Shown one piece after another: positions 4,131-20,318 of a DNA stretch of 64,000 nucleotides. Location of the stretch: NCBI RefSeq assembly GCF_038050405.1, contig NZ_CP150900.1, positions 2,790,001 to 2,854,000 on the forward strand, read 5' to 3'. Both the position numbers and the translations under genes were made by a program. How positions within the stretch are numbered: the stretch's first letter is position 1; every line of letters starts with the position of its first letter. The notes under the pieces are model-generated. The model searched no databases. It saw only the letters and a list, made by a program, of their open reading frames with translations, and was not told the origin of the DNA. The stretch is from Paraburkholderia sp. IMGN_8. GTDB lineage: Bacteria; Pseudomonadota; Gammaproteobacteria; Burkholderiales; Burkholderiaceae.

Positions 4131-5722
4131 GCGAGGCTCCCCCGGGGTTGCGGCGCCGGGGTTGGTGCGGCCGATGCGGGTCCATGCAGATGGCGCGCAT
4201 GCCGCAGGCTGATCACCGGCATGATCACGCCGATGAAAAAGAACATGCCCGGCAGCCCGGTCAATGTATTGACGAACACCATCATTGCGAAGATCGCGAG
4301 CGACACGCCGACGCCGGAAATCGCCAGCCGGTCTTTCGAGCGCAGGCGGCTCGCGAGGAACGCGCGCCACATCAGCAGCACGACCCCGCCCACATACAGC
4401 AGCGCGCCGGGCCAGCCCATCACGTACGGCACTTCCATCACGCCGCTGTCGAACACGACTCTCAGCTGCTGCGTATCGTCCGCGGAAAGTTTGGTGCCCA
4501 GACCCGTGGTGCCGAGACCCTGCCCGGCGATGTCGCTCAGCGCAACCATGAAGAATTGCTTGTAGAACTCGGCACGCACCTGGTAGCTGTTGTCTTCGCT
4601 GATGTTCTGGATCGTGTCGAAACGCTTCATGAGCGGCTCGGACACTTCGTCGATCATCAGCACCGGCGCGCCCAGCATCACCAGGCCCAGCAGGCCGGCG
4701 ATCAGCCGCAGGCGCCCCTTGCCGTCGAGCATCACAAGCGGATAGATCAAGCCGATCACCAGACCGCCCCACGCCCCGCGCACCGCCGTGAACATCAACG
4801 CGGGAACGCCGACGATTCCCATCGCGATGCGCATCTTGCCGCGTGCGCCTAGCGACAGCAGCATGATGCACATGATGGTCGTGGCGAACGGACCCGATGA
4901 ATTCATCGTGCTGCCGATGCGCATGCCGAACGGCACCGCCTCGCCCTCCGAGGTCATCTGCGAGGACAGCAGCCAGAAGGCGTCCCACGGCGACGGCGAG
5001 ATGAACTCGATCACGCCGTACAGGCCCATCACGAAACCCGCATACACGAAGGTCTTGAGCAGCACGCGGTGATAGACCGGATAGTCGCGCCATGTCGCGA
5101 CGAGGTGAAACGCGACCAGCACCGGGAACATCCAGTTGATCAGCGTGTACAGCGCGGCGGCCGGCCCGACCGCCGCCATGCCGATCACGAACGAGTAGAA
5201 CAGCGCCAGCATGATCATCACCAGCGGCGCGGCGCGGCGTTCGCCGAGGATGCGGAAGTTCCTGATCAGCGTGAAGCCGCTCAGCGAGACCGCCAGCAAC
5301 GGCGCGATCATCACCGGACTTTGCTGGTTGAAGGAACCATTGGCGAAGTCCGCGAGCCGCCGCACTTCCGGCGACAGAAAAAACAGCCAGCAAACGAAGC
5401 CGAGATAATGCGCGGGCGAGCGGCGATACAGCAGCAACGCGACACCGAACGCGCCGAGCGGAAAGAAGATCTCCACCAGCTTTGCCTGACGCAGGACGAT
5501 CAGGAGGAGCGTGACAGCGAAAAGCGCCAACGGCAGGCGGATGGGATGACGCATGCCCGCAGTCCGCCGGAGCGGCACGCCCGCGGCCGCGCTGCCGGAC
5601 GACGCAGCGGCGCCGGGCAGCGCACGCGGCGCTTCGTGTGACGACGGCGGTGGAGACTGCGGTGAGGACAGCGGCGGCAGCGCCGCCTTCTCGCTGGAAG
5701 GGGTAACCAGCATACGCGCCAT
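4127..5722 (-). CDS. Wzy-like polymerase / O-antigen ligase family membrane protein
   Basis: The protein has 531 residues and about ten to twelve predicted membrane segments, starting after a Pro/Ser-rich cytoplasmic N-terminus of about 55 residues. Segments such as LPLALFAVTLLLIVL and APLVMIMLALFYSFVIGMAA alternate with charged loops. A long loop around residues 330-410 containing VRAEFYKQFFMVAL, and the GLGTTGLG segment, resemble the Wzy_C/O-antigen ligase family. In an EPS locus this is most likely the periplasmic-face polymerase of the Wzx/Wzy route. The ATG at 5722 overlaps the upstream stop (ATGA); a GTG at 5725 is less likely. A ligase role is an alternative. Confidence 0.75.
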   Translation of the reverse strand: MARMLVTPSSEKAALPPLSSPQSPPPSSHEAPRALPGAAASSGSAAAGVPLRRTAGMRHPIRLPLALFAVTLLLIVLRQAKLVEIFFPLGAFGVALLLYRRSPAHYLGFVCWLFFLSPEVRRLADFANGSFNQQSPVMIAPLLAVSLSGFTLIRNFRILGERRAAPLVMIMLALFYSFVIGMAAVGPAAALYTLINWMFPVLVAFHLVATWRDYPVYHRVLLKTFVYAGFVMGLYGVIEFISPSPWDAFWLLSSQMTSEGEAVPFGMRIGSTMNSSGPFATTIMCIMLLSLGARGKMRIAMGIVGVPALMFTAVRGAWGGLVIGLIYPLVMLDGKGRLRLIAGLLGLVMLGAPVLMIDEVSEPLMKRFDTIQNISEDNSYQVRAEFYKQFFMVALSDIAGQGLGTTGLGTKLSADDTQQLRVVFDSGVMEVPYVMGWPGALLYVGGVVLLMWRAFLASRLRSKDRLAISGVGVSLAIFAMMVFVNTLTGLPGMFFFIGVIMPVISLRHARHLHGPASAAPTPAPQPRGSLA

Positions 5723-6255
5723 CACAACAACTCGAAGGTGTTGATGCCCGCCACGCCGTCGCGCTCGCGGCGGCGTACGCTAAATAGCGGCTGGCTGCCG
5801 CGCACCTGGCGCGTGAGTCCGATGAACGGCACGCCATGCTCGAGATACGGCCCTTCCGTCTTGCGAAAACCGAATTGCTCGTAGAAATCGCGCAAGCCGA
5901 CCGGCGCCGTCACGCGCGCGGCGTGTCCCGGCCAATGCTCGGCGATCGCCTGCAGCACCCGTTCGATCAGCAGCTCGGCGGTGCCGTCGCCGCGCCGCAG
6001 CGGACTCGTCAGCACCTTGTCGATGGTGACTTCAGGATCTTCCGCGTCGCCGGGTTGCAGGCGCGCATACGCGAGGATCGGCATCGCACGCGCCATGTCC
6101 TCGACCGCGAACACATGCAACGAACGCTCGTCGCGGCCATCGGCGTCGAGATAGACATGCGATTGCTCGACCACGAAGACCGCGCTACGCGCCCGCAAGA
6201 TCAGATAAAGCTCGCGCGCCGAGAGCTGCTCGAATTCCAGCGTTTTCCAGTTCAT
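5722..6255 (-). CDS. GNAT-family N-acetyltransferase, ElaA-like
   Basis: The protein has 177 residues. The layout matches ElaA: an N-terminal LRARSAVFVVEQ strand-helix, DKVLTSPLRRGDGTAELLIE as the acetyl-CoA-binding motif A, and FYEQFGFRKTEGPYLEHGVPFIGL near the C-terminus. The C-terminal 25 residues extend beyond the E. coli ElaA length. It is the first gene of the leftward EPS operon and overlaps the Wzy-like gene by four bases. It could acetylate a sugar or sugar nucleotide for the polymer, but ElaA-type proteins often act on small molecules, so the substrate is open. ATG 6255 is preferred over the GTG at 6258. Confidence 0.75.
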   Translation of the reverse strand: MNWKTLEFEQLSARELYLILRARSAVFVVEQSHVYLDADGRDERSLHVFAVEDMARAMPILAYARLQPGDAEDPEVTIDKVLTSPLRRGDGTAELLIERVLQAIAEHWPGHAARVTAPVGLRDFYEQFGFRKTEGPYLEHGVPFIGLTRQVRGSQPLFSVRRRERDGVAGINTFELL

Positions 6256-6588
6256 CACGTTCCCCAGCGGTTTCCAGGTTCTTGCGAAGCGGACTTCATG
6301 ATCCCGCCCTCATGGCCGGCTCAACACGCCGGTCCGTTGTCATGGCTACACGGTACGTCCGCGATACGCGTGCTTCCGTGCGCCATCGCACTGACGCTGG
6401 GCTTTGACAATCTTTAAATACGAGACGTCCGGACACAGCCGCACCACAAGTCTTGAATGCAACCTTGGGGCGGCCATACACGCGCAGCGAGGCACACCGA
6501 ACCAACACCGGAAAAACGACGGGGCCGGTTCGTTTTATCAGTCAGGCGGCACTTCGAGAGATAGTTGGCCAACAAGGGGTCCCTCACC
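6256..6588. other. Divergent intergenic region between two EPS transcription units
   Basis: This 333-bp gap separates the leftward glycosyltransferase operon from the rightward carrier-protein operon, so both promoters should lie here. An AT-rich patch at 6403-6422 (containing TTGACA and TTTAAAT) is the only promoter-like stretch I can see. I find no convincing paired -35/-10 elements and no RNA gene. Confidence 0.4.
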
Positions 6589-6840
6589 ATGAAAGAAGCA
6601 TTGCGACGCATCCTTTCCGAATCGGCACGTCTCGACGTCCTGCCGGACACGCTGGCAGACGATGCCGATCTCTACGCCGCAGGCTTGTCCTCGCTGGCGA
6701 CGGTGCATCTGATGCTGGCCATCGAAGACGAATTCGACATTGAAATCCCGGACCGCATGTTGACGCGCCGGCTCTTTTCCAGCATCGATTCGATGGCCGC
6801 CGCGGTGACCGAACTGCAACAGGCGAAGGCAGCAGCATGA
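6589..6840 (+). CDS. Carrier protein (ACP/PCP-like) of the aminoacyl module
   Basis: The protein has 83 residues. The phosphopantetheine site is DLYAAGLSSLATVHLM, with Ser35 as the attachment residue in a GLSSL variant of the usual GLDSL. Acidic helix II residues (IEDEFDIEIPD) are typical of acyl carriers. The ATG at 6589 is preferred; an in-frame TTG at 6565 would add eight residues. Its stop overlaps the flavoprotein start (ATGA), and an amino acid:[carrier protein] ligase follows two genes later. By analogy with the Bradyrhizobium and Agrobacterium aaCL/CP pairs, this protein should receive the activated amino acid on its thiol arm. It is probably not the housekeeping ACP. Confidence 0.85.
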   Translation: MKEALRRILSESARLDVLPDTLADDADLYAAGLSSLATVHLMLAIEDEFDIEIPDRMLTRRLFSSIDSMAAAVTELQQAKAAA

Positions 6841-8129
6841 ACGCCCCGCTGCTGGACGCGGCCGCCTCAGCCGCGCCGGAGGAACCCGCCGCCGCACCGG
6901 TCGTGCTGAGCGCAGTGGAAGCCGAACCCGGCTGGCGCGCGGCGGCGCAGCGTTGCGCGGCGGTGGCCGCGCAATTCGCCGACGCGGTGGACCGTGACGC
7001 GCGTTTTCCCAGCGAGGCTTTCGACGCGCTGCGGCGCGAACGTTTGCTCTCCGCGATGGTGTCGGCCCGTTTCGGCGGCGCCGGTCTGTCGCTCGCGGAT
7101 GTCGGCGCGATCTGCGAGACGCTGGCGCAGGGCTGCGCGTCCACCGCGATGGTGTACGCGATGCACCAGATCCAGGTGGCCTGCATCGAGGCGCACGGCA
7201 GCGAGTCGGCATGGCATCGGCAGTTGCTCGCGCAACTGGTGGACCATCAATGGCTGCTGGCTTCGGCGACGTCCGAGGAAACCATCGGCGGCAATATGCG
7301 CACCAGCGCCTGCGCGGTCGAACTCGACGACGAGCTCACCAACAAACTCGCCAACAAGCGCTTTCGCATCGAAAAGCTCGCGCCGACGATCTCGTACGGC
7401 GCGCACGCCGACGGCATTCTCGTCACCGCGCGCCGTACCGCCGAATCGGCCGCGGCCGACCAGGTGCTGATCGTCGCATTACGCGAACAAACGCAACTTG
7501 AAAAGCGCGGCGGCTGGGATTCGATGGGTATGCGCGGCACCTGCAGCGAGGGCTTCCGGCTCGTCGCCACGGGTCTGGTCGAACAGATCCTGCCCACCCC
7601 CTTCGCCGATATCGCCGATCAGACCATGCTCCCGGTGTCGCACACGCTGTGGGCCTCGGTATGGACCGGCGTGGCAAACGATGCGGTGAATCGCGCCAAG
7701 GCGTTCTTCCGCGCGCAGGCACGCTCGAAACCCGGTTCGATCCCGCCGGCCGGCTTGCGCCTCGCCGAAGCAGTCGGTCTGCTGCAGATGATGCAGGCGC
7801 GCCTGTCGGTGGCGCTCGAAGCGGCGCGCGCCGCGCATCACGCGACACACGGCGGCTGCCAGGCCGATGCGCCGCTCGCGGCGATGCTCGGCTTCGCCTC
7901 CGACATGAATACGCTGAAGACCAGCATCTCGACCACTGCACTGCAAGTCGTGCAGGAAGCGCTGATGATCTGCGGCATGGCCGGCTACAAGAACGGCACG
8001 GAATACAGCGTGGGACGCCATCTGCGCGACCTGTATTCCGCGCCGCTGATGATCAACAACGACCGTATCGCGCAGAACACCGCCAGCCTGTTGCTTGCAC
8101 AGCGTCCTGCCGCACCGGGGAGAGCCTGA
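6837..8129 (+). CDS. Acyl-CoA dehydrogenase-like flavoprotein
   Basis: The protein has 430 residues with the acyl-CoA dehydrogenase fold: an N-terminal helical domain (residues 20-140), a middle beta domain and a C-terminal four-helix bundle ending GRHLRDLYSAPLMINNDR. By eye, the position of the catalytic Glu of the classical IYEGT motif is taken by Asn (MINND), so it may be a specialised dehydrogenase or a flavin oxygenase-like member rather than a beta-oxidation enzyme. It sits between the carrier protein and the amino acid ligase, so its substrate is plausibly an aminoacyl-S-carrier. It is translationally coupled to the carrier gene by a 4-bp overlap. Confidence 0.75.
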   Translation: MNAPLLDAAASAAPEEPAAAPVVLSAVEAEPGWRAAAQRCAAVAAQFADAVDRDARFPSEAFDALRRERLLSAMVSARFGGAGLSLADVGAICETLAQGCASTAMVYAMHQIQVACIEAHGSESAWHRQLLAQLVDHQWLLASATSEETIGGNMRTSACAVELDDELTNKLANKRFRIEKLAPTISYGAHADGILVTARRTAESAAADQVLIVALREQTQLEKRGGWDSMGMRGTCSEGFRLVATGLVEQILPTPFADIADQTMLPVSHTLWASVWTGVANDAVNRAKAFFRAQARSKPGSIPPAGLRLAEAVGLLQMMQARLSVALEAARAAHHATHGGCQADAPLAAMLGFASDMNTLKTSISTTALQVVQEALMICGMAGYKNGTEYSVGRHLRDLYSAPLMINNDRIAQNTASLLLAQRPAAPGRA

Positions 8130-8130
8130 G

Positions 8131-9207
8131 ATGAACACGATGACCGAGACCGCCGCGCTCGCCGCTGCGCCGGCCGAAACCGGCGCGACGCCGAGCTTTC
8201 GCGACGAGCTGCTGGCCGCGGGGCTCCTGATCGACACCGGCGAAAACGGCCTGTACGGGCGCAGCCAGGTATTCGAAGACGTGGTGGACCGCCTGAACGT
8301 CGCGATCACGCATCTGGGCGCGGATCAGCAGCCGGAAGTGCTGCGCTTTCCGCCGGCGATGCGCCGCACCGACTTCGAAGATAGCGAATATCTGAAGAGC
8401 TTCCCGAATCTCGCCGGCACCATCCACTCGTTCTGCGGCAACGATATGGGTCATCAGCGCCTGTTGCGCGCGCTCGACGACGCCATGGCCGAACGCGACG
8501 ACGAGCGCGGCGAAGCATGGATGGCCCAGCAAAAACCGACGCGCGTCGTGCTGACGCCGGCTGCCTGCTATCCGATCTATCCGGTGATGGCGCGGCGCGG
8601 TCCGCTGCCGGCCAACGGCCGCACCATCGACGTGCTGTCGTACTGCTTCCGCCACGAACCGTCGCTCGATCCGGGCCGGATGCAGATGTTCCGTCAGCGC
8701 GAATACGTGCGGCTCGGCACGCCGGAACAGGTGATGGCGTTCCGGCAGATGTGGGTCGAACGCGGCTCGCTGCTGATTACGCTGCTGCAACTGCCGGTCG
8801 AGGTGGATCTGGCCAACGACCCGTTCTTCGGCCGCGGCGGCAAGATCGTCGCCGATAGCCAGCGTGCCCAGGCGCTCAAGTTCGAACTGCTGATTCCGGT
8901 GGCGAACGCCGACAGCAAGACCGCCTGCCTGTCGTTCAACTATCACATGGATCACTTCGGCGCGATCTGGAAAATCGCATGCGAAGACGGCGCGGTGGCG
9001 CATACGGGTTGCGTCGGCTTCGGCATGGAACGCATCACGCTAGCGTTATTCCGCCATCATGGGCTCGACCTGAACGCGTGGCCGGACGAGGTGCGCGCGC
9101 TGCTGTGGGGCGACACCCAGGCGCGTGTCGCGCACGGCATGGCGCAGGCGCGCGAGGCGCGGGCGCTGCCCGCCGCGCCGCTACAGGGTGCCGGAGACAG
9201 CGCATGA
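8131..9207 (+). CDS. Amino acid:[carrier protein] ligase (class II aaRS-like, SerRS-type core)
   Basis: The protein has 358 residues and is a truncated class II synthetase catalytic core with no tRNA-binding arm. Motif 2 is FRHEPSLDPGRMQMF (Arg174, Glu176) and motif 3 is GFGMERITLALF (Arg301). Cys146, Glu191 and Cys294 are spaced 45 and 103 residues apart, the same spacing I recall for the zinc ligands of the Bradyrhizobium glycine:[CP] ligase (Cys131, Glu176, Cys279). It should adenylate a small amino acid and load it on the phosphopantetheine of the nearby carrier protein. The ATG at 8131 follows a GGGGAGA ribosome-binding site. Which amino acid it uses cannot be read. Confidence 0.85.
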   Translation: MNTMTETAALAAAPAETGATPSFRDELLAAGLLIDTGENGLYGRSQVFEDVVDRLNVAITHLGADQQPEVLRFPPAMRRTDFEDSEYLKSFPNLAGTIHSFCGNDMGHQRLLRALDDAMAERDDERGEAWMAQQKPTRVVLTPAACYPIYPVMARRGPLPANGRTIDVLSYCFRHEPSLDPGRMQMFRQREYVRLGTPEQVMAFRQMWVERGSLLITLLQLPVEVDLANDPFFGRGGKIVADSQRAQALKFELLIPVANADSKTACLSFNYHMDHFGAIWKIACEDGAVAHTGCVGFGMERITLALFRHHGLDLNAWPDEVRALLWGDTQARVAHGMAQAREARALPAAPLQGAGDSA

Positions 9208-10265
9208 GGTCGTCTCCCTCCCCCCAACTGAAGGGAGCGCCGTCCGCTTTTCCGCCGCTCGCACGGCTCGCCCCGCACACTCAGGCCCCTGCGGTCCCGA
9301 GCGCGGCGCCGCCGCGCCAGCATGCGCCGCACGCGCTGCATCAGGGCGATCGCGTGTGGCAGGAAACCAACTGCTACGTCGATCTGTGGATCGAGCTGCT
9401 GCACGGCTTCGGACTCGATCCGCGCGCGGCGTTCGGCTTTACCGTCACGCAGGATTTCGAAGGCGATCAGTTCACGTTCTTCAAATTCCCGCTTGAAGAC
9501 CTCGAGCGGCTGTACGGCACCCAGGTGCAGGAACTCGCGATCTACGACTCGCTCGAGGCCCGCGTGCTTGCGCAAACCTTGCGCGGCCATACGGTGCTTG
9601 TGGAAGTGGACGGCTACTACCTGCCGAACACACGTGCCACGTCATATCGGCGCGAGCATCCGAAAACCACCGTGGGCATCGACTTCATCGATCCGGCCGC
9701 GCGCCGCCTCGGTTATTTCCACAACACCGGCTATCACCTGCTCGACGGTGAAGACTACGACGGCGTGTTTCGCAAGCTGCCGCAGTTCGCGCAGCAGCCC
9801 GATCTGCTGTTTCCTTATGTCGAATTCGCCAAGCAGGCGCGGCCCGCGCTGGAAGGCACCGCGCTTGCCGACGCGTCGGCCGAATTGTTGTGCTCGCATC
9901 TAAGCCGGCGGCCGTTGAGCAATCCGATCTCGCAGTGGCGCGTCGCGTTTCCCGACCATCTCGAGACGCTGCTCGAACGCGGCGAAGCGTTCTTCCACCC
10001 GTACTCGTTCAACCTGATGCGGCAGCTCGGCGCGAACTTCGAGTTTTTGTCGAAGTATCTGCTGTGGCTCACCAGCCAGGGCTTCGAGATTCCGGCGTCG
10101 ATCCCGGCCGCGGCGCAAAGCATCGCGTCGGAGTCGATGGTGATGCAGTTCCGGCTCGTGCGGGCGATCACGCGCGCTCGCCGCGATTTGTGCGAAGACT
10201 GCTTCGATACGCTGGAAATTGCTTACGAAAAGACGCTGCCGCCACTCGCCGCCCTGGTGTCGTGA
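9204..10265 (+). CDS. DUF1839 family protein
   Basis: The protein has 353 residues. After a Pro/Ala-rich N-terminus of about 45 residues comes a conserved-looking core (QETNCYVDLWIELLHGFGLDP, DFEGDQFTFFKFPLEDLE, VEVDGYYLPNTRATSYRREH). I recognise this as DUF1839, a family found beside amino acid:[carrier protein] ligases. A Cys-Tyr-Val-Asp near the start of the core and several conserved-looking His and Tyr suggest an enzyme fold, perhaps the acyltransferase that takes the amino acid from the carrier, but that is inference. The start overlaps the ligase stop by four bases. There is no signal peptide, so it should be cytoplasmic. Confidence 0.75.
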   Translation: MRSSPSPQLKGAPSAFPPLARLAPHTQAPAVPSAAPPRQHAPHALHQGDRVWQETNCYVDLWIELLHGFGLDPRAAFGFTVTQDFEGDQFTFFKFPLEDLERLYGTQVQELAIYDSLEARVLAQTLRGHTVLVEVDGYYLPNTRATSYRREHPKTTVGIDFIDPAARRLGYFHNTGYHLLDGEDYDGVFRKLPQFAQQPDLLFPYVEFAKQARPALEGTALADASAELLCSHLSRRPLSNPISQWRVAFPDHLETLLERGEAFFHPYSFNLMRQLGANFEFLSKYLLWLTSQGFEIPASIPAAAQSIASESMVMQFRLVRAITRARRDLCEDCFDTLEIAYEKTLPPLAALVS

Positions 10266-10299
10266 CGCGCGCTCGCCGCCCTAGCCGCAGGGATTCGCC

Positions 10300-12897
10300 G
10301 TGGATGCACTGACGACCGACGCAGAGCCTGATGCCGCCCCGCTCGTACCCACCGGCCCGATTGGGACTATTGGGACCGCTACCGGGTTAGCGGCGCAGGA
10401 TCTCTGGCCACAGCGGCTCGACACGGGCTGGCAGTGCGTCAGCACGCCGGCGGGCGCATGTGCGTCGCCCGCCGACTTACCGATGGATGGCTGGCTCGGC
10501 GCGCCAGTGCCGGGCACAGTGGCGAGCGCGCGCCGCGCCGCGGGCCTCTTCGACGCCGCCCATCCGCCGCCGCTCGCTTTCGACGATCACTGGTACCGGC
10601 TGACGCTGACAGGCACGGGCAAACGCCGCTTGCGTCTGCACGGGCTCGCGACGCTCACCGAGGTCTGGCTCGACGGCACCAGGCGGCTCGATTCCGATTC
10701 GATGTTCGTCGCGCACGATCTCGACATCGAACTGCACGGCAGCGCGACGCTCGCCCTGTGCTTTCGCTCTCTCACGCCAGCGTTGGCGGAAAAACGCTCA
10801 CGCGCGCGCTGGCGGCCACGTCTTGTTTCGCCGCCGACCTTGCGCAACCTGCGCACCACCCTGCTCGGCCATATGCCCGGTTGGTGTCCGCCCGTGCAAG
10901 CGGTCGGCCCTTGGCGGCCGGTCGAACTCCTCAGCGATGCGCCGGACGCATTCGACACTGTCGATCTCATGAGCCACCTTGATGGCGACGACGGCGTTGT
11001 TACGCTGACGCTACGCTTTGTTCATCCGCACGACAGCGCGGCGAACCGCGCCTCGTTGAATTGCGGCGGGTTCGTTTCGTCTTTGCAATGGCGCGATGCC
11101 TATACGCTGACCGGCAGCGTGCGCGTGCCGCACGCCGAACGCTGGTGGCCGCATACGCACGGCACGCCGACTTTATATCCTCTGACGTTGCAGCTCGATG
11201 ACGAGCACCCGATAACCCATGTATTGGGATCGGTCGGTTTTCGCCGCATCGAAGTGGATCATGGCGCGGACGGTGCGGGCTTCGCGCTGCGCGTCAACAA
11301 CGGTACGCCGGTGTTCTGCCGCGGCGCCTGCTGGACCAGCGCGGATCTCGTTACCTTAAGCGGCACTGCTGAGCAATTGCGCCACGCTTTTGCGCTCGCG
11401 CGCGCGGCGGGAATGAACATGCTGCGCGTGGGCGGCACCATGGTGTACGAGTCGGATGCGTTCTACGCGCTCGCCGACGAATACGGCATCCTCATCTGGC
11501 AAGACTTCGCGTTGGCGAATTTCGACTACCCGACCGACGCCGCTTTCAGCGCGTCGATCGACCGCGAGGCCAGCCAGTTCCTGACCCGCACGCGGCGCTT
11601 CGCGTCGCTCGCGGTGCTGTGCGGCGGCAGCGAAGTCGACCAGCAGGCGGCCATGCTGGGCCTGCCGGTTTCGATGCGCACGCAACCATTGTTCACCCGC
11701 CAGTTGCCGGCGATCGCGGCACGCGAGCGGCCGGACGTGCCGTACGTCAGCAACTCGCCCTCGGGCGGCGTCTGGCCGTTTTCGACTAATACCGGCATCA
11801 CGCATTACTACGGCGTCGGCGCCTATCAGCGTCCGCTCGACGACGTGCGCCGCTCACAGGTGCGCTTCGCCGCCGAGTGCCTCGCGTTCGCCAACGTGCC
11901 CGACGACGCCACCTTGCACGACGCGCCCGGCACGATGCACGTGCACGATCCGCGCTGGAAAGCCGCCGTGCCGCGCGACCCCGGCGCCGGCTGGGATTTC
12001 GACGACGTGCGCGACCACTACCTTCAGACGCTATATGGTGTCGAACCGGCGCGGCTGCGTTACGAAGACCCGCAACGCTATCTTGACCTGTCGCGCGCGG
12101 TGGTCGCCGAACTGATGAGCGACGTGTTCGCCGAGTGGCGCAGCGCCGGCTCGTCATGCGGCGGCGCCCTGGTCTGGCAGTTTCAGGATCTGCGACCCGG
12201 GGCGGGCTGGGGCCTGATCGACGCCACAGGACGGCCCAAAAGCGCCTGGCACGGCCTCGCGCAGACACTGCAGCCCGTGCAGCTGGTCATGACCGACGAA
12301 GGCCTCAACGGCCTCGCTATCCATTTACTGAACGAGCGTGCGCAACCGTTGCAAGCGCAGCTGGATCTGGTGTGCCTGCGTGACGGTTGCGTCAAGGTAG
12401 CGTCCGCGAGCCGGGCGGTCGAGCTGGCACCGCACAGCGCGGAGCGTATCGGCGCGGCCGAGTGCCTCGGCCAGTTCTTCGACTTCACGCACGCGTACCG
12501 CTTCGGCCCGCGCGCGCATGATGTAACGATTGCGACACTGCGCGATCCGGCAAGCGGCCGGATTCTGGCAGAAGCGTTTCATCTGCCGGAGCGGCGCGCC
12601 AGCGAATGCCACGAGCTGGGTTTGACGGTGACTGCCGGGCGCGCCGGCGACAGCTGGCAACTCGTCATCGAAGCAAAGCGGTTCGCGCGCTTCGTTCACA
12701 TCGTTGACACGCATTACCGGGCCGCGCACGACTGGTTCCATCTGCCGCCGAACCGCGCTGTGACCGTGCCGCTCATCCCCTCGGCTCAACTCGTTGCGTG
12801 CGCATCGAACCCGGCATTTAAAGCTAACGCAACATGCGTGGCGCCCGCCGGCGAAGTGCGTGCGATCAATGCGATTTCCGCCACGTTCTACGGTTGA
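10300..12897 (+). CDS. Glycoside hydrolase family 2-like protein (beta-mannosidase-like)
   Basis: The protein has 865 residues and uses a GTG start (10300) after GCAGGGA. The order fits GH2: a jelly-roll N-terminal domain (WYRLTLTGTGKRRLRLHGLA), immunoglobulin-like domains, then a TIM barrel. The predicted acid/base Glu445 lies in AVLCGGSEVD and the predicted nucleophile Glu526 in RFAAECLAF, both at the places expected for beta-mannosidases, so activity may be kept. No signal peptide is seen, which is odd for a polysaccharide hydrolase and points to a cytoplasmic oligosaccharide or a glycosyl-intermediate substrate. It is the last gene of the carrier-protein operon, 34 bp after DUF1839. Confidence 0.7.
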   Translation: MDALTTDAEPDAAPLVPTGPIGTIGTATGLAAQDLWPQRLDTGWQCVSTPAGACASPADLPMDGWLGAPVPGTVASARRAAGLFDAAHPPPLAFDDHWYRLTLTGTGKRRLRLHGLATLTEVWLDGTRRLDSDSMFVAHDLDIELHGSATLALCFRSLTPALAEKRSRARWRPRLVSPPTLRNLRTTLLGHMPGWCPPVQAVGPWRPVELLSDAPDAFDTVDLMSHLDGDDGVVTLTLRFVHPHDSAANRASLNCGGFVSSLQWRDAYTLTGSVRVPHAERWWPHTHGTPTLYPLTLQLDDEHPITHVLGSVGFRRIEVDHGADGAGFALRVNNGTPVFCRGACWTSADLVTLSGTAEQLRHAFALARAAGMNMLRVGGTMVYESDAFYALADEYGILIWQDFALANFDYPTDAAFSASIDREASQFLTRTRRFASLAVLCGGSEVDQQAAMLGLPVSMRTQPLFTRQLPAIAARERPDVPYVSNSPSGGVWPFSTNTGITHYYGVGAYQRPLDDVRRSQVRFAAECLAFANVPDDATLHDAPGTMHVHDPRWKAAVPRDPGAGWDFDDVRDHYLQTLYGVEPARLRYEDPQRYLDLSRAVVAELMSDVFAEWRSAGSSCGGALVWQFQDLRPGAGWGLIDATGRPKSAWHGLAQTLQPVQLVMTDEGLNGLAIHLLNERAQPLQAQLDLVCLRDGCVKVASASRAVELAPHSAERIGAAECLGQFFDFTHAYRFGPRAHDVTIATLRDPASGRILAEAFHLPERRASECHELGLTVTAGRAGDSWQLVIEAKRFARFVHIVDTHYRAAHDWFHLPPNRAVTVPLIPSAQLVACASNPAFKANATCVAPAGEVRAINAISATFYG

Positions 12898-13525: not shown

Positions 13526-14260
13526 ATGTTGACACTTCAATCAGACCTGCACGGCAACCATCTGCTCGGCGCATTGCCGTCCCACGAATGGCAAGCACTT
13601 GCCCCTCACCTCGAACTGGTCCATCTGCGTACCGAGCAGTTGCTGTGCGACTCCGGCCAACGCATCCATCACGTCTACTTCCCGACCACGGCGATCATCT
13701 CGATGCTCTCGACGATGGAAGACGGCAGCTCGGTCGAAATCGCCGCCGTCGGCCGCGAAGGTATGACCGGCGTGCCGGTGCTCACCGGCGGCGAAACCAT
13801 GCCGAACCGCGTGCAGGTCCAATGCGCCGGCTTCGCGTACCGGATGAGCGCACAGGCGCTCAAGCAGCAATTCGCCCGCTCCGATTTCCTGCGCCGCCTG
13901 ATGCTGCTGTATATGCACGCCCTGCTCACGCAAGTCGCGCAGACCGCTGCCTGCAATCGCCACCACGCGCTGAACAAGCAGCTGTGCCGGTGGCTGCTGA
14001 TCGAAGTGGACAGGGTTGCTTCGAACGATCTGACGGTTACCCAGCAACTGATCGCCGACATGCTCGGCGTGCGCCGCGAAGGCATCACCGAAGCGGCCGG
14101 CAAGCTGCACGACGAAGGCCTGATTCACCACAGCCGCGGCCACATCAAGGTGCTCGACCGCAAGGGCCTCGAAGCACGCGCCTGCGAATGCTATGGCCTC
14201 GTCAAGCGCGAATTCGACCGCCTTCTGCCGCGCCTGCGTCAGGCTGAGACCGTCGAATGA
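13526..14260 (+). CDS. Crp/Fnr-family transcriptional regulator
   Basis: The protein has 244 residues. A cyclic-nucleotide-binding-like beta-barrel (residues 10-130, with ILSTMEDGSSVEIAAVGREGM-like spacing) is followed by a C-terminal HTH_Crp domain (TVTQQLIADMLGVRREGITE, about residues 168-190). I see no N-terminal cysteine cluster of the Fnr type. The ATG at 13526 has a GAGGAC site 8 bp upstream. It stands directly before the undecaprenyl-phosphate sugar transferase and likely controls the EPS export operon, though the ligand is unknown. Only 34 bp separate it from the next gene. Confidence 0.85.
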   Translation: MLTLQSDLHGNHLLGALPSHEWQALAPHLELVHLRTEQLLCDSGQRIHHVYFPTTAIISMLSTMEDGSSVEIAAVGREGMTGVPVLTGGETMPNRVQVQCAGFAYRMSAQALKQQFARSDFLRRLMLLYMHALLTQVAQTAACNRHHALNKQLCRWLLIEVDRVASNDLTVTQQLIADMLGVRREGITEAAGKLHDEGLIHHSRGHIKVLDRKGLEARACECYGLVKREFDRLLPRLRQAETVE

Positions 14261-14294: not shown

Positions 14295-15683
14295 ATGCTT
14301 AGGAATACTGCTCGATGTCTCGACGCACTCTTTGTGATTGCTGGCGGGCTGCTCGCTCACTGGATGCGCTTTTCGACGCCGATCGCGTTGACGGACACCG
14401 AGCGTCTTCTGATCGCCTTCAACTGCGTACTCGTGCTGCTGCTGTTTCCCGGCTTCGGCGTGTATGAAACGTGGCGCGGGAAATCACTGCCGGCAATGCT
14501 GGCACGCGTGGGCGCGGCGTGGCTGGTCGTGGTCGCCACCGCCGTCGTGCTGGCGTTTACCTTGCAGCACCGGATGGACGCGCTGTCGCGCTTATGGTTC
14601 GGCTACTCGACGCTGATTTCCGGCGCGCTGATCATCGTCACGAAGTGCCTCGTGCATGTGGCGCTGCGCAGCGTGCGGCGGCGCGGCATGAACTTCCGCT
14701 CGGTCGCGATCGTCGGCGCGCCAGGCTTCTCGCGCACGTTGCTCGCGCATCTCGACTGTGCGCCGCAAGCCGGTTTCAAACCGGTCTGCGTATTCGACAC
14801 CAGCGTCGAAGGGTCCAGCGCCTTCGGCGCGCGCCTGAACCACCTGCCGGTGCTGACCGATCTGAACGCGTTCGCCGCCAAGGTGCGCGACGAGCACGTG
14901 AATGAAGTGTGGCTGGCGTTGCCGCTTTCGGAAGAACATACGATCTATCGCTTCATGCGCACATTCCGGCATGACTTCGTCAATCTGCGATTCATTCCCG
15001 ACGTGCGCAGCCTCTCGCTTTTCAACCACGCGCTGGTCGATGTCGTCGGCTTACCGACACTGAATCTGAGCACCACGCCGTTCTCGCCGCCGCAGATGTG
15101 GCCCAAGCTGATCTTCGACCGGCTGTTCGCGGCGCTCGCGTTACTGGCGTTGGCGCCGGTCTTCATCGTGCTCTCCATCGCGATCAAGCTGACTTCGCCG
15201 GGACCGGTGTTCTTCCGGCAAACCCGCAAGGGCGTCGACGGCCAGCCGTTCGCGATCTACAAGTTCCGCTCGATGACCGTGCATCGCGAAGCGCATGGAC
15301 AGCTCACGCAGGCCGCGCGCAACGACACGCGCGTGACGAAGCTCGGCGGCTTCATGCGCCGCACCAGCCTCGACGAACTGCCGCAATTCCTGAATGTGCT
15401 GCTCGGCCAGATGTCGGTGGTCGGCCCGCGTCCGCATGCGCTCGAGCACGACGATCTCTACAAGGATCAGGTGTACGGCTACATGTACCGCTACCGGATC
15501 AAGCCCGGTATCACCGGCTGGGCGCAGGTGAACGGCTATCGCGGCGCCACCACCAAGGTCGAAAAGATGGAGACGCGCATCAAGTTCGATCTTTTCTACA
15601 TCCACAACTGGTCGTTCTGGTTCGACATGAAGATCGTGTTCATCACGATCTTCAAAGGCTTTATCAACCGGAACGCATTTTGA
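14295..15683 (+). CDS. wcaJ: Undecaprenyl-phosphate glucose phosphotransferase (WcaJ/EpsE-like)
   Basis: The protein has 462 residues. Four to five N-terminal membrane helices (residues 5-125) and a CoA-binding-like Rossmann domain ([18 protein letters not shown]) precede a polyprenyl glycosylphosphotransferase domain (residues 265-462). Signature blocks are [52 protein letters not shown] and [12 protein letters not shown]. The enzyme starts EPS repeat synthesis by moving a hexose-1-phosphate, usually glucose-1-P, to undecaprenyl phosphate at the inner membrane. Its stop touches the next gene (TTGA), so the pair is probably co-transcribed. Galactose-1-P is a possible alternative donor. Confidence 0.9.
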
Positions 15684-15706: not shown

Positions 15707-16639
15707 GTGAAAGTCTCCGTGATCGTGCCGACCTACCGGCGCACCGCCGATCTGGCGCGCTGCCTCGCGGCACTCGATGCGCAGCAGCGCCGCGCCGACG
15801 AAGTGATCGTGATCGCACGTCACGACGATTACGCGACGCTCGACTGGCTGCGCACTCGCGAAGCGAACCGGCCGGACGCGCGCCTGTGGATCGTGCTGGT
15901 GCGCACGCCGGGCGTGGTCGCCGCATACAACCTGGGTATCGAAAGCGCCAGCGGCGACGTACTCTGCTTCACCGACGACGACGCCGCGCCGCATCCCGAC
16001 TGGATCGAGCGGATCGCCCTCGCCTTCGAAAACGATGCGTCGCTCGGCGGTCTGGGCGGACGCGACATCGTGCACGAACGCAACGGCATTCTGCAGGGGC
16101 AGAAACCGCGCGTGGGGCTGGTGCGCTGGTATGGCCGCGCCATCGGCAATCACCATATCGGCCATGGCGCGGCGCGCGAGGTGCAGGTGCTCAAGGGCGT
16201 CAACATGGCGTTTCGCCGCGAGGCGATCGGCACGCTGCGTTTCGACGGGCGCTTGCGCGGCACCGGCGCGCAGGTGCATTGCGAAATGGGTTTCAGCCTC
16301 GACGTGCAGCGGCGCGGCTGGACCCTGATCTATGACCCATCGTTGCTGGTGGAGCACTTCCCGGCCCAGCGCAACGACGAGGACCAGCGTTACACATTCA
16401 ACGACGCGGCTTTCTATAACGCGTCATTCAATCTCCGACTCATCATGTGCGAATACCTGACGCCGCCGGGCCGATGGGCGTTCGTCGCTTATTCGACGCT
16501 GATCGGCGATCGTGCGGACCCGGGGTTCCTGCGCGCATTGTCGTTGGCATTCGAGAGCGGCGGCGTGGCTCTCGCGCTTCGCAAATGGCGAGTCGGTTTA
16601 CGCGCAATGCGCGGGGCATGGCAGGAGGCGGCACGCTGA
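15707..16639 (+). CDS. GT2-family glycosyltransferase
   Basis: The protein has 310 residues from a GTG start (15707), chosen because GAGAA precedes it and MKVSVIVPTYRR is the usual GT2 N-terminus. An overlapping TTG at 15680 would add nine residues. The GT-A fold shows FTDDDAAPHPDW (the DxD-type metal site), the LKGVNMAFRREAI acceptor-side block and a final region with a hydrophobic helix (PPGRWAFVAYSTLI). It should add the second or a later sugar to the lipid-linked EPS repeat made by the preceding enzyme. The inverting mechanism is expected from the family; the specific sugar is unknown. Confidence 0.85.
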   Translation: MKVSVIVPTYRRTADLARCLAALDAQQRRADEVIVIARHDDYATLDWLRTREANRPDARLWIVLVRTPGVVAAYNLGIESASGDVLCFTDDDAAPHPDWIERIALAFENDASLGGLGGRDIVHERNGILQGQKPRVGLVRWYGRAIGNHHIGHGAAREVQVLKGVNMAFRREAIGTLRFDGRLRGTGAQVHCEMGFSLDVQRRGWTLIYDPSLLVEHFPAQRNDEDQRYTFNDAAFYNASFNLRLIMCEYLTPPGRWAFVAYSTLIGDRADPGFLRALSLAFESGGVALALRKWRVGLRAMRGAWQEAAR

Positions 16640-16680
16640 CCGATCCGATCAGCGCATCGTTTCACGCGAGGGACCACAAA

Positions 16681-17883
16681 ATGAATATCAAAACAATGGC
16701 CGCAGGGCTCGCGGCCGCATCGCTATGCGCCTGCTCATTGGCGCCAGGACCTTATCTGGACACCAAACGGCTGGAGCCGCCCCCTCCGCCGCAACAGACC
16801 GCGGAAAAATTCCCGGTTCGCGCGATCGATGTCGGCTATTTTCGTCAGCAGCGCGCGGCCGCCGTACCGGCGGTCTGTCCGTTGCAGTGCCTGACGTCGA
16901 AAACGCGCAGCTCCTATGACTATCACCTGGGGATCAGCGATCAGCTGACCATCATCGTCTGGGATCACCCGGAACTGACGGGTGGCGGCTCGGGCGCGGC
17001 GGCCGGTGTGCCGCCTCTGCCGGCGGGCAGCAGCGGCACGGCGCCGTCGCCGGGACCGACGCAGACACAAGGCGCGACACCGATCGCGCCGACGCTGACG
17101 GGCGGCGGCGAAGGTGGGCTGACGGTGCGGGTCGCCAATAACGGCACGATTTTCTTCCCGCGCGTGGGCCGCATCAAAGTGGTCGGCATGACCGCGCAGC
17201 AGGTCCAGCAGGAGCTGACCAAGGGTCTGTCCAGGACGATCCGCAATCCGCAACTCGACGTGCGCGTATCGGGCTTTAACAGCCAGTCGGTGCAGGTGAC
17301 CGGCAACCTGCGCACGCCCGCTTCGGAAGCGATCACCGACACGCCGCTGACCGTGCTCGACGCGATCAATCGCGCGGGCGGCGCACTGGCCGACGCGGAT
17401 CTGCAAAACGTCGGCGTCACGCGCGACGGCAAGCGCTACACGGTCGACGTCGCCGCGCTGCTCGAAACCGGCGATCCGCAACAGAACGTATTGCTGAAAG
17501 ACGGCGACATCATCGACGTGCCGGACCGTTCCAACAGCCGCGTCTTCGTGCTCGGCGAGGTCAACAAGCCGACCTCGCTGCCGATGAACCGCGGCCGCCT
17601 GACGCTCGCCGACGCGCTGACCGGCGCGGGCAGCCTCGACGTCAAAACCGGCGACCCGCGTTTCGTGTACGTGGTGCGCGGCGCCGACAAGACGCTCACG
17701 CCCGACGTCTATCAGCTCGACATGACGCAGGTCGACGCGTTGATGCTGATGACCAAGTTCGAACTACAGCCCAAGGATGTGGTGTACGTGCAAGTCTCGA
17801 GCGCCGCCCGCTTTAACCGCGCACTCGAACAGATCACGCCGACCCTGCAAACCTTGTTCTACACATGGCAGTTGTCCAAGTAA
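16681..17883 (+). CDS. Polysaccharide export outer-membrane lipoprotein (Wza-like)
   Basis: The protein has 400 residues. The signal peptide ends at a lipobox-like LCAC, with Cys18 the likely lipidated residue. A Poly_export/PES block follows (YHLGISDQLTIIVWDHPEL, residues 80-100), interrupted by a Gly/Pro/Ser-rich insert (residues 101-140) that is long for the family. Then come the rest of PES (VANNGTIFFPRVGRIKVVG) and two SLBB repeats (QSVQVTGNLRTPASEAI and SRVFVLGEVNKPTSLPM). It forms the outer-membrane channel for EPS. It is 23 bp from the Wzc-like kinase, its usual partner. Confidence 0.9.
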   Translation: MNIKTMAAGLAAASLCACSLAPGPYLDTKRLEPPPPPQQTAEKFPVRAIDVGYFRQQRAAAVPAVCPLQCLTSKTRSSYDYHLGISDQLTIIVWDHPELTGGGSGAAAGVPPLPAGSSGTAPSPGPTQTQGATPIAPTLTGGGEGGLTVRVANNGTIFFPRVGRIKVVGMTAQQVQQELTKGLSRTIRNPQLDVRVSGFNSQSVQVTGNLRTPASEAITDTPLTVLDAINRAGGALADADLQNVGVTRDGKRYTVDVAALLETGDPQQNVLLKDGDIIDVPDRSNSRVFVLGEVNKPTSLPMNRGRLTLADALTGAGSLDVKTGDPRFVYVVRGADKTLTPDVYQLDMTQVDALMLMTKFELQPKDVVYVQVSSAARFNRALEQITPTLQTLFYTWQLSK

Positions 17884-17906
17884 AACGATCGCTACGGAGT
17901 ATCTAT

Positions 17907-20318
17907 ATGAGTACGTACGACATGCTGGATCACGGACCGGCGCCGGGCAACGACGAGGACGCAGTCTTGCGGGACTTGTTGCGCATCATCGTCGATCAGA
18001 TCGGGTGGGTGATCGGCATTGCCGGCTGCGTCATCCTGGCCGCGGTGATTTATACCAGGATCGCGACGCCGATCTATTCCGCCGACGCACTGCTTCAGGT
18101 CGAAGCGCAGAACGCCAACGGCAACGCCACGCCGAGTCAGGCCATGCTTGCGCTCATGCCGTCGATCGGTGCGACGCACACCGAGGCGGAAATCGAAATC
18201 ATCAAGAGCCGCGCGGTGGTCGAACCAGTGGTCGAGCAATTCAAGCTGAACTTCAGCGTGGTGCCGAAGACCATGCCGGTGCTCGGCAAGATCTCCGCGC
18301 TCTTCGCGCATCCGGGCCGTCCGCTCGGCGCTGCGTTCGGCATGAGCTCCTATGCGTGGGGCGGCGAGCAATTCGAGGTCGATTCGATCACGGTGCCGAA
18401 GTCGCTCGAAGGAGTGCAGCTGATACTGCGCGTGCTCGACTACGGACGCTATGAACTGATCGACTCGTTCGGCGAACGGATCCTGACCGGCGTGGCCGGC
18501 CAGGAAGCGAGCGGCAACGACGTCACGTTGTTCGTCAAGACACTGGTGGCGCGTCCGGGCACCGAGTTCCACGTCACGCGCTTCAACCAGCTCGATGCGG
18601 TATCCACCCTCTCGTCCGGTCTGCAAGTGTCGGAGAAAGGCCGTGAAACCGGCGTCGTGCAACTGTCGTACATGGGCAAGGATCCGCACGCGATCACCGC
18701 GATCACCAACGCGGTGGCGGCATCGTATCTGAAGCAGCGCACCGAACGCGCGCAGGAAGAAGCGAGCCGCATGCTGAGCTTCCTGAACAGCGAATTGCCG
18801 CGTCTGCGTACCGAGGTCAAAAAGGCAGAAACCGCGCTGTCCGAATACCAGTCGCGTGTCGGTTCGTTCCAGCCGACCCAGGAAGCCGGGGTGTACCTCG
18901 CCGGCGGTCTGGACTACGAAAAGCAGATCGCGTCGCTGCGCATCATGCGTGCGCAACTGCTGCAGCGCTTCACCGCGGAGAGCCCGGAAGTGCAGCAGGT
19001 CGACGCGCAACTGGCAGCGATGACAAGCGAAAAGGCGCGCTTCGAACAGCACTTCACGACGCTGCCGAGTTCCGAGCGCAACGCCCTCGCCTTGCAGCGC
19101 GATGCGAAGGTTGCTGAAGAAATCTACGTGGCGCTGCTGAACAAAACCCAGGAGCTGTCGATCTCGCGTGCCGGCACGATCGGCAACGTGCATATCATCG
19201 ATCAGGCCTTGCTGCCGTCCCAGCCGGTGCGTCCGAAGGCGGCGCTGATCATTTCGGCGGGCACGGTGCTCGGCATCATCGCCGGCATTCTGTTCGCGTT
19301 CTGCCGGCGCACGTTCTTTACCGGCGTGTCCGATCCGGAGTTCGTCGAACGCCGCTTCCAGCTGCCGATCTTCGGTTCGATCACCTTCAGCCCGGAACAG
19401 GCGCGCAGCGACCGGCTGTTGAGTACCACGCGCGGCGCCGCCTTGCCCGCGCCGAGTTCGCGGCCGACCGAAGTGCCGGCCCTGTCCGCGACGCCATCCG
19501 GCATCGAGCGGTTGATCCGATCGCGCACGGCGGCGGCCAAGGGCGCGCGCGTGCCGGTCGGCACGCAAACCGTCATCCCGTCGGCCAGGACGCCGATGCG
19601 CTCGCTGCTGGTGAAGACGCATCCGTTCGATATGACGGTGGAAGGTTTGCGCGGACTGCGCGCCACGCTGCAATTCGGCCTGGTCGATGCGCCCAATCGG
19701 GTGGTGGCGATCACGAGCCCGGCGCCTTCGGACGGCAAGAGTTTCCTGTGCGCGAACCTCGCTGCGCTGATCGCCGAGTCCGGCAAGCGCGTGCTGCTGA
19801 TCGACGCCGATCTGCGGCGCGGCCGGCTCGCGCAATATTTCGGCCGCTCGCCCAACGGCGGCTTGACCGAACTGCTGACCGGCCAGGTCGATCTGGAAGT
19901 CGCGGCTCGCGCCACGGGCGTCGACGGCTTGCACTTCATCGCGGCGGGCGCTTATCCGCCGAACCCGTCCGAGATCCTGACGTCGTCGCGTTTCAGCGAA
20001 ATTCTTGCGCGCTTCGAGCAGGAGTTCGACTTGGTGATCGTCGATACGCCGCCACTGCTGGCGGTTGCCGATGCCGCGGTGGTCGCCAATATCGCCGGCT
20101 CGACGGTGCTGGTGATGCGTGCCGGCATGCACTCCGAGCACAACGTCACCGATGCGCTGAAGAAACTGCGGCGCGCGCGTGCCCGAGTGGTGGGCGGCGT
20201 GATGAATGCGGTGCCGTTGAAGAGCCGCAACAGGAACGGCACGTATGACTACGCGTATGCGTACACCTACTCCGCCGGCGATCCGATCAATCCTCAGGCT
20301 CCTCAAGCACCACGATAG
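17907..20318 (+). CDS. Polysaccharide co-polymerase / BY-tyrosine kinase (Wzc-like)
   Basis: The protein has 803 residues. A Wzz domain with two membrane helices (about residues 33-52 and 435-460) brackets a periplasmic coiled-coil region. The cytoplasmic kinase domain has Walker A (SPAPSDGKSF, Lys611), Walker A' (VLLIDADLRRG, Asp632) and Walker B (FDLVIVDTPP, about residue 711). The tail has five alternating tyrosines at 780-788 (YDYAYAYTY), the expected autophosphorylation cluster. It controls EPS chain length and export together with the Wza-like protein. A GGAG site precedes the ATG. It is the last gene of the unit and is followed by a strong terminator. Confidence 0.92.
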   Translation: MSTYDMLDHGPAPGNDEDAVLRDLLRIIVDQIGWVIGIAGCVILAAVIYTRIATPIYSADALLQVEAQNANGNATPSQAMLALMPSIGATHTEAEIEIIKSRAVVEPVVEQFKLNFSVVPKTMPVLGKISALFAHPGRPLGAAFGMSSYAWGGEQFEVDSITVPKSLEGVQLILRVLDYGRYELIDSFGERILTGVAGQEASGNDVTLFVKTLVARPGTEFHVTRFNQLDAVSTLSSGLQVSEKGRETGVVQLSYMGKDPHAITAITNAVAASYLKQRTERAQEEASRMLSFLNSELPRLRTEVKKAETALSEYQSRVGSFQPTQEAGVYLAGGLDYEKQIASLRIMRAQLLQRFTAESPEVQQVDAQLAAMTSEKARFEQHFTTLPSSERNALALQRDAKVAEEIYVALLNKTQELSISRAGTIGNVHIIDQALLPSQPVRPKAALIISAGTVLGIIAGILFAFCRRTFFTGVSDPEFVERRFQLPIFGSITFSPEQARSDRLLSTTRGAALPAPSSRPTEVPALSATPSGIERLIRSRTAAAKGARVPVGTQTVIPSARTPMRSLLVKTHPFDMTVEGLRGLRATLQFGLVDAPNRVVAITSPAPSDGKSFLCANLAALIAESGKRVLLIDADLRRGRLAQYFGRSPNGGLTELLTGQVDLEVAARATGVDGLHFIAAGAYPPNPSEILTSSRFSEILARFEQEFDLVIVDTPPLLAVADAAVVANIAGSTVLVMRAGMHSEHNVTDALKKLRRARARVVGGVMNAVPLKSRNRNGTYDYAYAYTYSAGDPINPQAPQAPR

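What the first reader, a model, noticed from the sequence alone, without database searches (positions are those of the whole stretch)
6589..12897. Amino acid:[carrier protein] ligase module embedded in an exopolysaccharide locus
A carrier protein, a flavoprotein, a tRNA-independent aaRS-like ligase, DUF1839 and a GH2-like enzyme form a coupled operon with ATGA overlaps, placed between the two halves of a Wzx/Wzy-type EPS locus. The ligase keeps the Cys/Glu/Cys zinc triad with 45- and 103-residue spacing. aaCL enzymes are known biochemically in Bradyrhizobium and Agrobacterium, but their pathway is, to my knowledge, unresolved. The setting suggests that an activated amino acid, perhaps oxidised on the carrier, is attached to an EPS sugar by DUF1839 or another enzyme. 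The linkage to EPS is inference from position.
Basis: partly seen in the sequence, partly recalled or inferred. Interest (0 to 1): 0.75.

Follow-up and report, generated by a model that had tools for sequence, protein, structure and literature searches.

The report
Carrier-protein aminoacyl-transfer module in biofilm locus
Five neighbouring bacterial genes look like a small assembly line that loads an amino acid onto a carrier protein and hands it on, probably to a sugar; here it sits inside a gene cluster for a biofilm-type polysaccharide, and its hand-over enzyme has the predicted shape of an antibiotic-pathway enzyme that joins an amino acid to a sugar.

Summary
Window 6589-12897 encodes, on one strand, a carrier protein (CP), an acyl-CoA-dehydrogenase-like flavoprotein (ACAD), an amino acid:[CP] ligase (aaCL), DUF1839 and a GH2 enzyme, inside a Wzx-type EPS locus. 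The order is conserved: all 16 DUF1839 genomes of a 398-genome phylum sample have it, and 76 of 80 named loci, nearly all Burkholderiaceae.

A 2010 note (PMC2922099) proposed that a gene in this place joins the amino acid to a cell-surface amino sugar.

Added here: (1) the DUF1839 model matches, full length, only CcbD, AziU3 and CtaG; CcbD is a CP-dependent cysteine enzyme joining an amino acid to an amino sugar. (2) The neighbours are those of the Bep/bec biofilm EPS locus; published insertions there, one in the flavoprotein gene, give smooth colonies. (3) Twelve of 28 aaCL genomes (Bradyrhizobium type) lack DUF1839 and GH2, and lie mostly away from polysaccharide genes. (4) The five-gene module also stands alone, so EPS decoration is unproven; the published Bep repeat has no amino sugar, though NaOH extraction would remove esters.

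Most likely DUF1839 is a CP-dependent aminoacyltransferase; its acceptor is open.

The parts
6589..6840 (+). Aminoacyl carrier protein (CP), 83 aa; phosphopantetheine Ser35 in GLSSL
   Evidence: NF005480 126 bits over cut-off 72; PF00550; nearest solved structures Agrobacterium Atu2571-type CP, 69 bits; Ser invariant in 111 of 111 rows, 89 distinct; the only CP of this family over cut-off in the genome
6837..8129 (+). Acyl-CoA-dehydrogenase-fold flavoprotein without the usual catalytic Glu by alignment; LMI[NSH]NDRI motif near the C-terminus
8131..9207 (+). Amino acid:[carrier protein] ligase (aaCL), Zn ligands C146/E191/C294
   Evidence: NF005479 535 bits; Bll0957 structures 293-299 bits; triad invariant in 122 of 122 rows
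9204..10265 (+). DUF1839: predicted papain-like CP-dependent aminoacyltransferase; C57, H152, T155/T156, H173; basic stretch R317, R320, R324, R326
9372..9374 (+). Codon of predicted catalytic Cys57 of DUF1839
   Evidence: C in 106 of 114 rows; the 8 exceptions are in-operon copies from 7 genomes that have a second DUF1839
10300..12897 (+). GH2 (beta-mannosidase-like) glycosidase, E445 and E526 conserved, no hydrophobic N-terminus
   Evidence: PF22666/PF00703 over cut-off; beta-mannosidase 5n6u E 3e-40; both Glu in 106 of 106 rows, 100 distinct; hydropathy
13526..14260 (+). Crp/Fnr-type regulator, relative of the Crp genes next to the module in B. cenocepacia
   Evidence: PF13545/PF00027; 49% identity to L204:5828-6709
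14295..15683 (+). WcaJ-type undecaprenyl-phosphate glucose phosphotransferase, start of the downstream EPS half
   Evidence: TIGR03023 499.5 bits over cut-off 410.75
5722..6258 (-). GNAT protein, relative of the GNAT beside ManC in B. cenocepacia (Bcam1341 type, COG2153, by position)
   Evidence: NF007644 89.7 bits, below cut-off 171; 53% identity to L204:17130-17789; Table 2 of PMC3584217
1729..5837 (-). Two long overlapping ORFs with GT4 glycosyltransferase domains, upstream EPS half (true starts not set)
   Evidence: PF00534/PF13439 for 2880-5837; GT4-type NCBIfam matches for both
16447..20318 (+). Wza (16447-17883) and Wzc (17865-20318)
   Evidence: PF02563 and PF13807/PF02706

Best explanation
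The five genes are one carrier-protein pathway that activates a small amino acid and transfers it to a sugar-like acceptor in the cytoplasm. aaCL adenylates the amino acid and loads it on Ser35-phosphopantetheine of the CP (inferred from characterised relatives). The ACAD-fold flavoprotein acts on the CP-bound aminoacyl group; reaction unknown (inferred). DUF1839 takes the group onto Cys57 and passes it to an amine or hydroxyl of a sugar, ping-pong as in CcbD, docking the CP through a basic stretch near its C-terminus (fold shown on a model; chemistry inferred). The GH2 enzyme trims or releases the glycoside (inferred). In Burkholderiaceae the module serves the Bep/bec-type biofilm EPS locus in which it lies (position shown; published insertion phenotypes, polarity not excluded).
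Against: Module away from EPS genes: initiating sugar transferase near in 0 of 11 five-gene loci outside the window's class; stand-alone on several plasmids; 12 of 80 named loci without EPS marker hits, 2 of them on short contigs. The Bep repeat is Gal-Glc-Gal-Man without amino sugar or amino acid, although it was taken up in 0.3 M NaOH. The CP insertion (becF by order) was in the library but not found in the screen, and becG has the mildest defect of the seven bec mutants of Table 1. No sequence similarity between DUF1839 and CcbD was found, and its triad order is published as swapped (PMC10318531). In this genome the three DegT aminotransferases over 250 bits are about 91 kb or more from the window; the one hit inside it, near 42.1 kb, scores only 25.5 bits.
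Confidence: 0.6

Rival explanations
1. The module makes a free small molecule (an aminoacylated sugar or similar metabolite or signal). The EPS locus only hosts and co-regulates it, and EPS phenotypes are indirect.
For: Compact and portable: complete five-gene set without annotated EPS machinery on plasmids of Caballeronia, Azospirillum, Mycetohabitans and Rhizobium; closest folds are natural-product enzymes (roles of AziU3 and CtaG recalled); no glycosyltransferase inside the five genes; published Bep repeat bears no such group.
Against: Recurrent Wzx, GT4 or XrtA-type hydrolase neighbours also outside the window's class, with a Wzx fused to the hydrolase pair in L087 and L092; smooth colonies of becG mutants.
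Confidence: 0.35
2. The aminoacyl CP feeds a non-ribosomal peptide pathway, as the discoverers of aaCL suggested (as cited in PMC2922099).
For: Chemistry of aaCL and CP; the three-gene type lacks DUF1839 and GH2.
Against: No condensation-type family is among the 25 most frequent flank families of either type (only those 25 are shown); DUF1839 and GH2 complete every DUF1839 locus of the phylum sample; the 2010 note argued against it.
Confidence: 0.05
3. DUF1839 is a hydrolase (thioesterase or protease) that unloads or processes rather than transfers.
For: Papain-like superfamily with many peptidases (PMC10318531, passages read); swapped triad.
Confidence: 0.15
4. Published bec phenotypes come from polar effects on neighbours, so the module has no role in the EPS.
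For: Transposon insertions in an operon; becF (CP by order) gave no hit; becG defect mild.
Against: The sigma-54 regulator gene beyond the module is on the opposite strand in the related loci L199 and L202, so polarity would act mainly on module genes and the hydrolase.
Confidence: 0.3

Closest known systems
aaCL/CP pairs of Bradyrhizobium (Bll0957) and Agrobacterium (Atu2571 CP)
   Same: aaCL 293-299 bits to Bll0957 structures, same Zn triad; CP nearest Atu2571
   Different: Bll0957 is nearly identical to the three-gene type (L098, 718 bits), which lacks DUF1839 and GH2; Atu2571 goes with the five-gene type (L087 CP 124 bits)
2010 proposal for Atu2574 (PMC2922099, note added in proof)
   Same: Same kind of gene set and same proposed step: amide ligation of the amino acid to a cell-surface sugar. 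That Atu2574 is a DUF1839 protein is inferred from gene order, not looked up
   Different: Argued from neighbourhood; no fold, no tie to Bep/bec, no split into two module types
CcbD/LmbD of lincosamide biosynthesis; AziU3; CtaG
   Same: Fold over the whole protein, Cys at a helix start, basic stretch near the C-terminus
   Different: No detectable sequence similarity; triad order swapped according to PMC10318531; acceptor unknown
Bep (Bcam1330-1341) and becA-R biofilm EPS loci
   Same: In B. cenocepacia L204 the module is flanked by WcaJ and Crp genes on one side and sigma-54 regulator, GNAT and ManC on the other; the window has relatives of GNAT (53%), Crp (49%) and WcaJ (46%)
   Different: In the window the module points the other way: GNAT on the CP side, Crp and WcaJ on the GH2 side. 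The sigma-54 and ManC genes of L204 were not found in the window, L004 or L005. Published bep limits leave the module out
XrtA/exosortase-A-associated hydrolases TIGR03100 and TIGR03101
   Same: A fused pair is a recurrent neighbour of the module
   Different: Below the curated cut-offs (57-113 bits against 168 and 203)
Dlt-type D-alanylation of teichoic acids (recalled)
   Same: Ligase plus carrier protein delivering an amino acid to a polymer; CP scores 31 bits to a DltC model
   Different: No membrane transferase in the module; ligase of another superfamily

Membership tests
amino acid:[carrier protein] ligase | Match over the curated family cut-off | tested here: met
   NF005479 535 bits against 357
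amino acid:[carrier protein] ligase | Cys/Glu/Cys zinc triad of the class II core | tested here: met
   C146/E191/C294, 122 of 122 rows; metal role recalled
amino acid:[carrier protein] ligase | Charges a carrier protein and not tRNA | not testable with these tools
   Inferred from relatives; needs purified proteins
CcbD/CtaG/AziU3-type CP-dependent acyltransferases | Same fold over the whole chain | tested here: met
CcbD/CtaG/AziU3-type CP-dependent acyltransferases | Catalytic Cys at the start of the first core helix | tested here: met
   C57 starts helix 57-68 of the model; C in 106 of 114 rows
CcbD/CtaG/AziU3-type CP-dependent acyltransferases | Catalytic His and third residue as in CcbD | tested here: inconclusive
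   H152 and H173 invariant, T155/T156 kept in all 106 rows with C57; a swapped order is published; no residue-level superposition was available
CcbD/CtaG/AziU3-type CP-dependent acyltransferases | Detectable sequence relationship | tested here: not met
   hmmsearch with A5 against PDB chains gave one weak hit to another protein; therefore fold-level likeness, not filed as a member
acyl-CoA dehydrogenase superfamily | Fold | tested here: met
acyl-CoA dehydrogenase (dehydrogenases proper) | Catalytic Glu at one of the two usual sites (sites recalled) | tested here: not met
   The IYEGT-type site reads LMI[NSH]NDRI; H269/W272 lie near the other site; judged by eye on sequence alignment, so filed only as ACAD-fold flavoprotein
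GH2 glycosidase | Pfam matches over cut-off and both catalytic Glu | tested here: met
   PF22666 32.4 over 27, PF00703 24.3 over 23; E445 and E526 in 106 of 106 rows
Bep/bec biofilm EPS locus | Shared marker genes in the same order | tested here: inconclusive
   GNAT, Crp, WcaJ, GT4, Wza and Wzc present; module inverted relative to these; ManC and sigma-54 genes of L204 not found in the window, L004 or L005
XrtA-associated hydrolases | Score over the curated cut-off | tested here: not met
   57-113 bits against 168.45 and 202.75 in the six proteins with the pair; not filed as members

The most novel reading that the evidence does not exclude
DUF1839 would be a CcbD-like aminoacyltransferase working outside antibiotic pathways: with aaCL and CP it would decorate a biofilm exopolysaccharide (or its lipid-linked repeat) with an amino acid or an oxidised derivative, a cytoplasmic Gram-negative counterpart of D-alanylation that alkaline extraction of Bep would have destroyed. 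A swapped catalytic triad, and Cupriavidus operon copies in which Cys57 is lost and T156 has become Cys beside a second, intact DUF1839, would be natural variants of the active site.
Probability: 0.3. Interest if true: 0.8.

Novelty: new variant of a known kind. Interest (0 to 1): 0.6.

Why it matters
The destination of the aaCL/CP amino acid was left open in the sources I read. A concrete transfer enzyme with a solved mechanistic cousin (CcbD), a named residue to mutate (Cys57) and a named polysaccharide to analyse (Bep-type EPS) make it testable. If the amino acid ends up on the EPS, biofilm matrix charge and solubility would be under enzymatic control, and Bep should be isolated again without base. 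The split into five-gene and three-gene types also warns that biochemistry done on Bradyrhizobium Bll0957 concerns the type that lacks the transfer enzyme.

Tried and rejected
Amide to an amino sugar of Bep: not favoured, since the published Bep repeat holds only Gal, Glc and Man; ester linkage or another acceptor stays open. A DegT aminotransferase as source of an amino sugar in this locus: the three over 250 bits lie about 91 kb or more from the window; a hit of 25.5 bits (cut-off 19.8) inside the window near 42.1 kb was not followed.

A proximity test with glycosyltransferase family PF00534: the listing was cut short, so I did not count from it; it does show a GT4 about 12 kb from the three-gene module in G247 and in G365. 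Flanks of the 11 five-gene loci outside the window's class (101 genes): GT4 family 7, Wzx-type 3, alpha/beta hydrolase 8. Flanks of the three-gene type were scanned for 8 of 12 loci (92 genes) and gave mainly signalling and metabolic families, but Wzz in 3 genes; Wzz-type genes lie within 10 kb in 3 of 12 (L105, L106, L108), so that type is not wholly free of polysaccharide neighbours.

Literature: searches by gene name, locus tag and family gave no paper on the function of DUF1839 beyond PMC10318531 and PMC2922099 (open-access library only). The 2010 PNAS paper on aaCL was not read; what I say of it is as cited in PMC2922099 or recalled.
Full report
What is there. Window 6589-12897 holds five + strand genes: CP, ACAD-fold flavoprotein, aaCL, DUF1839 and GH2. 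Two junctions are ATGA overlaps, one a 1-nt gap and one a 34-nt gap. The aaCL triad C146/E191/C294 has the stated spacing and is invariant in 122 of 122 rows; CP Ser35 in 111 of 111 and both GH2 catalytic Glu in 106 of 106. Rows include some copies of one genome from two sources: distinct sequences are 116, 89 and 100. None of the five proteins has a membrane-like stretch by a simple hydropathy scan, so the work is probably cytoplasmic.

Conservation. In a sample of 398 genomes of the window's phylum (own genome included; Pseudomonadota, inferred from the hits) aaCL over cut-off is in 28 and DUF1839 in 16, all 16 also with aaCL. In those 16 (15 loci read plus the window) the order CP-ACAD-aaCL-DUF1839-GH2 is the same. 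The other 12 aaCL genomes have ACAD-aaCL, with a divergent CP detected in 10 of 12, and no DUF1839 in the genome and no GH2 hit in the stretch read. Bradyrhizobium Bll0957 is of that three-gene type (718 bits), while Agrobacterium Atu2571 goes with the five-gene type (124 bits). Among 98 relatives aaCL is in 31, 30 over cut-off, so it is patchy. Of 80 named loci (the best 80 of 583, so biased to close kin; titles are Burkholderiaceae, one only Burkholderiales) 76 have all five genes in order, 5 of these with a second DUF1839; 2 lack GH2 where the contig ends (L192, L205), and 2 lack DUF1839 and GH2 (L182 on a 5.7 kb contig, L183 in 20.9 kb).

Flavoprotein. The fold is that of acyl-CoA dehydrogenases, and Z does not separate dehydrogenases, the flavoprotein ColB1 (titled as catalysing assembly-line-tethered cysteine dehydrogenation) and class D monooxygenases (37.8-40.6). 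By alignment both usual catalytic Glu sites (recalled) are lost, with a conserved LMI[NSH]NDRI motif instead (122 rows). Reaction and substrate are inference.

EPS setting. Downstream lie a Crp regulator, WcaJ, GT2, Wza, Wzc and GT4; upstream GNAT and GT4s, and before the window start GT4, Wzx and a fused hydrolase pair. In B. cenocepacia L204 the module lies between two Crp genes plus WcaJ on its CP side and a sigma-54 regulator, GNAT and ManC on its GH2 side. In the window the same neighbours sit the other way round, so module and flanks are inverted to each other. The L204 genes match Bcam1340 (ManC), Bcam1341 (COG2153), Bcam1342 (BerB) and Bcam1349 (BerA) (PMC3584217 Table 2; PMC9684580 passages), so the module would be about Bcam1343-1347 by order; I did not check it against the J2315 annotation. 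In B. pseudomallei the homologous becA-R cluster was nearly saturated in a pellicle screen: 15 of 18 genes were hit; becM and becO were not in the library, and becF, in the library, was not found. becG, annotated acyl-CoA dehydrogenase, gave biofilm 0.84 against 1.25 and smooth colonies (PMC5507470, sections 16-18 read). By gene order in the related loci L199 and L202, becF to becJ are CP, ACAD, aaCL, DUF1839 and GH2 (inferred). Polarity is not excluded, and the CP result speaks against a simple reading.

Against an EPS-only role. Of seven plasmid regions viewed (59 plasmid records matched DUF1839), six hold the five genes; in five of these no flippase, polymerase or initiating transferase is annotated, though Mycetohabitans has an ArnT-type transferase and an acyltransferase upstream and R. 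leguminosarum a GT4 remnant; Shinella has GumC and O-antigen-ligase genes about 6-8 kb upstream. The seventh has a DUF1839 alone. Outside the window's class the TIGR03101+TIGR03100 hydrolase pair is near the five-gene module in 8 of 11 loci and in 0 of 12 three-gene loci, with three Wzx-like genes, two of them fused to the pair. The three-gene type has Wzz-type genes within 10 kb in 3 of 12. The Bep repeat has no amino sugar or amino acid, though it was taken up in 0.3 M NaOH and measured in NaOD.

What was known. The 2010 note added in proof (PMC2922099) named the same kind of neighbours and predicted that Atu2574 forms an amide between the amino acid and a cell-surface amino sugar, with a redox step. 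The additions here are the fold match, the Cys57/second-copy pattern, the two module types and the tie to Bep/bec with existing mutant data. I found no paper making the last link.

Verdict. DUF1839 as a CP-dependent aminoacyltransferase is well supported at fold level (about 0.75). A sugar-type acceptor is likely (about 0.6). Covalent decoration of the EPS is possible (about 0.3).

Noticed in passing
L004:8859-10878 (own genome C1, about 3.706 Mb): Two more aaCL genes in tandem, overlapping, inside a second Wzx-type polysaccharide cluster (WbaP-type transferase, GTs, Wzx), with intact Zn triads but no CP, flavoprotein or DUF1839 seen beside them; the genome has one CP of this family over cut-off, the one in the window, and a strong DegT aminotransferase lies about 23 kb away.
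   Followed up: partly
L083, L085, L188, L189, L193, L207, L208, L210: In these Cupriavidus-type loci the in-operon DUF1839 has lost Cys57 (R or Q) and has Cys at T156, while a second DUF1839 is encoded about 4 kb away or, for L083/L189, on another contig.
   Followed up: partly
L087:15273-18599 and L092:1457-4768: A Wzx-like flippase fused to two alpha/beta-hydrolase domains of the XrtA-associated type, two genes downstream of GH2.
   Followed up: partly
L125:16013-16999: A DUF1839 gene alone on a conjugative Rhizobium plasmid, without aaCL or CP annotated or found within 16 kb.
   Followed up: no
L109-L112: Distant aaCL-like proteins (about 150-175 bits, under the cut-off) in further genomes of the phylum, with no hit to the other module genes nearby.
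   Followed up: no
L005:3053-4712: Flavin reductase and methyltransferase genes in the upstream EPS half; the reductase recurs near the module in 8 of 80 named loci.
   Followed up: partly
L087:5781-6842: In a rhizobial-type locus a class II (D, K, N type) tRNA-synthetase-like gene lies just upstream of the module, and EF-P domains occur in two of the 101 flank genes.
   Followed up: no
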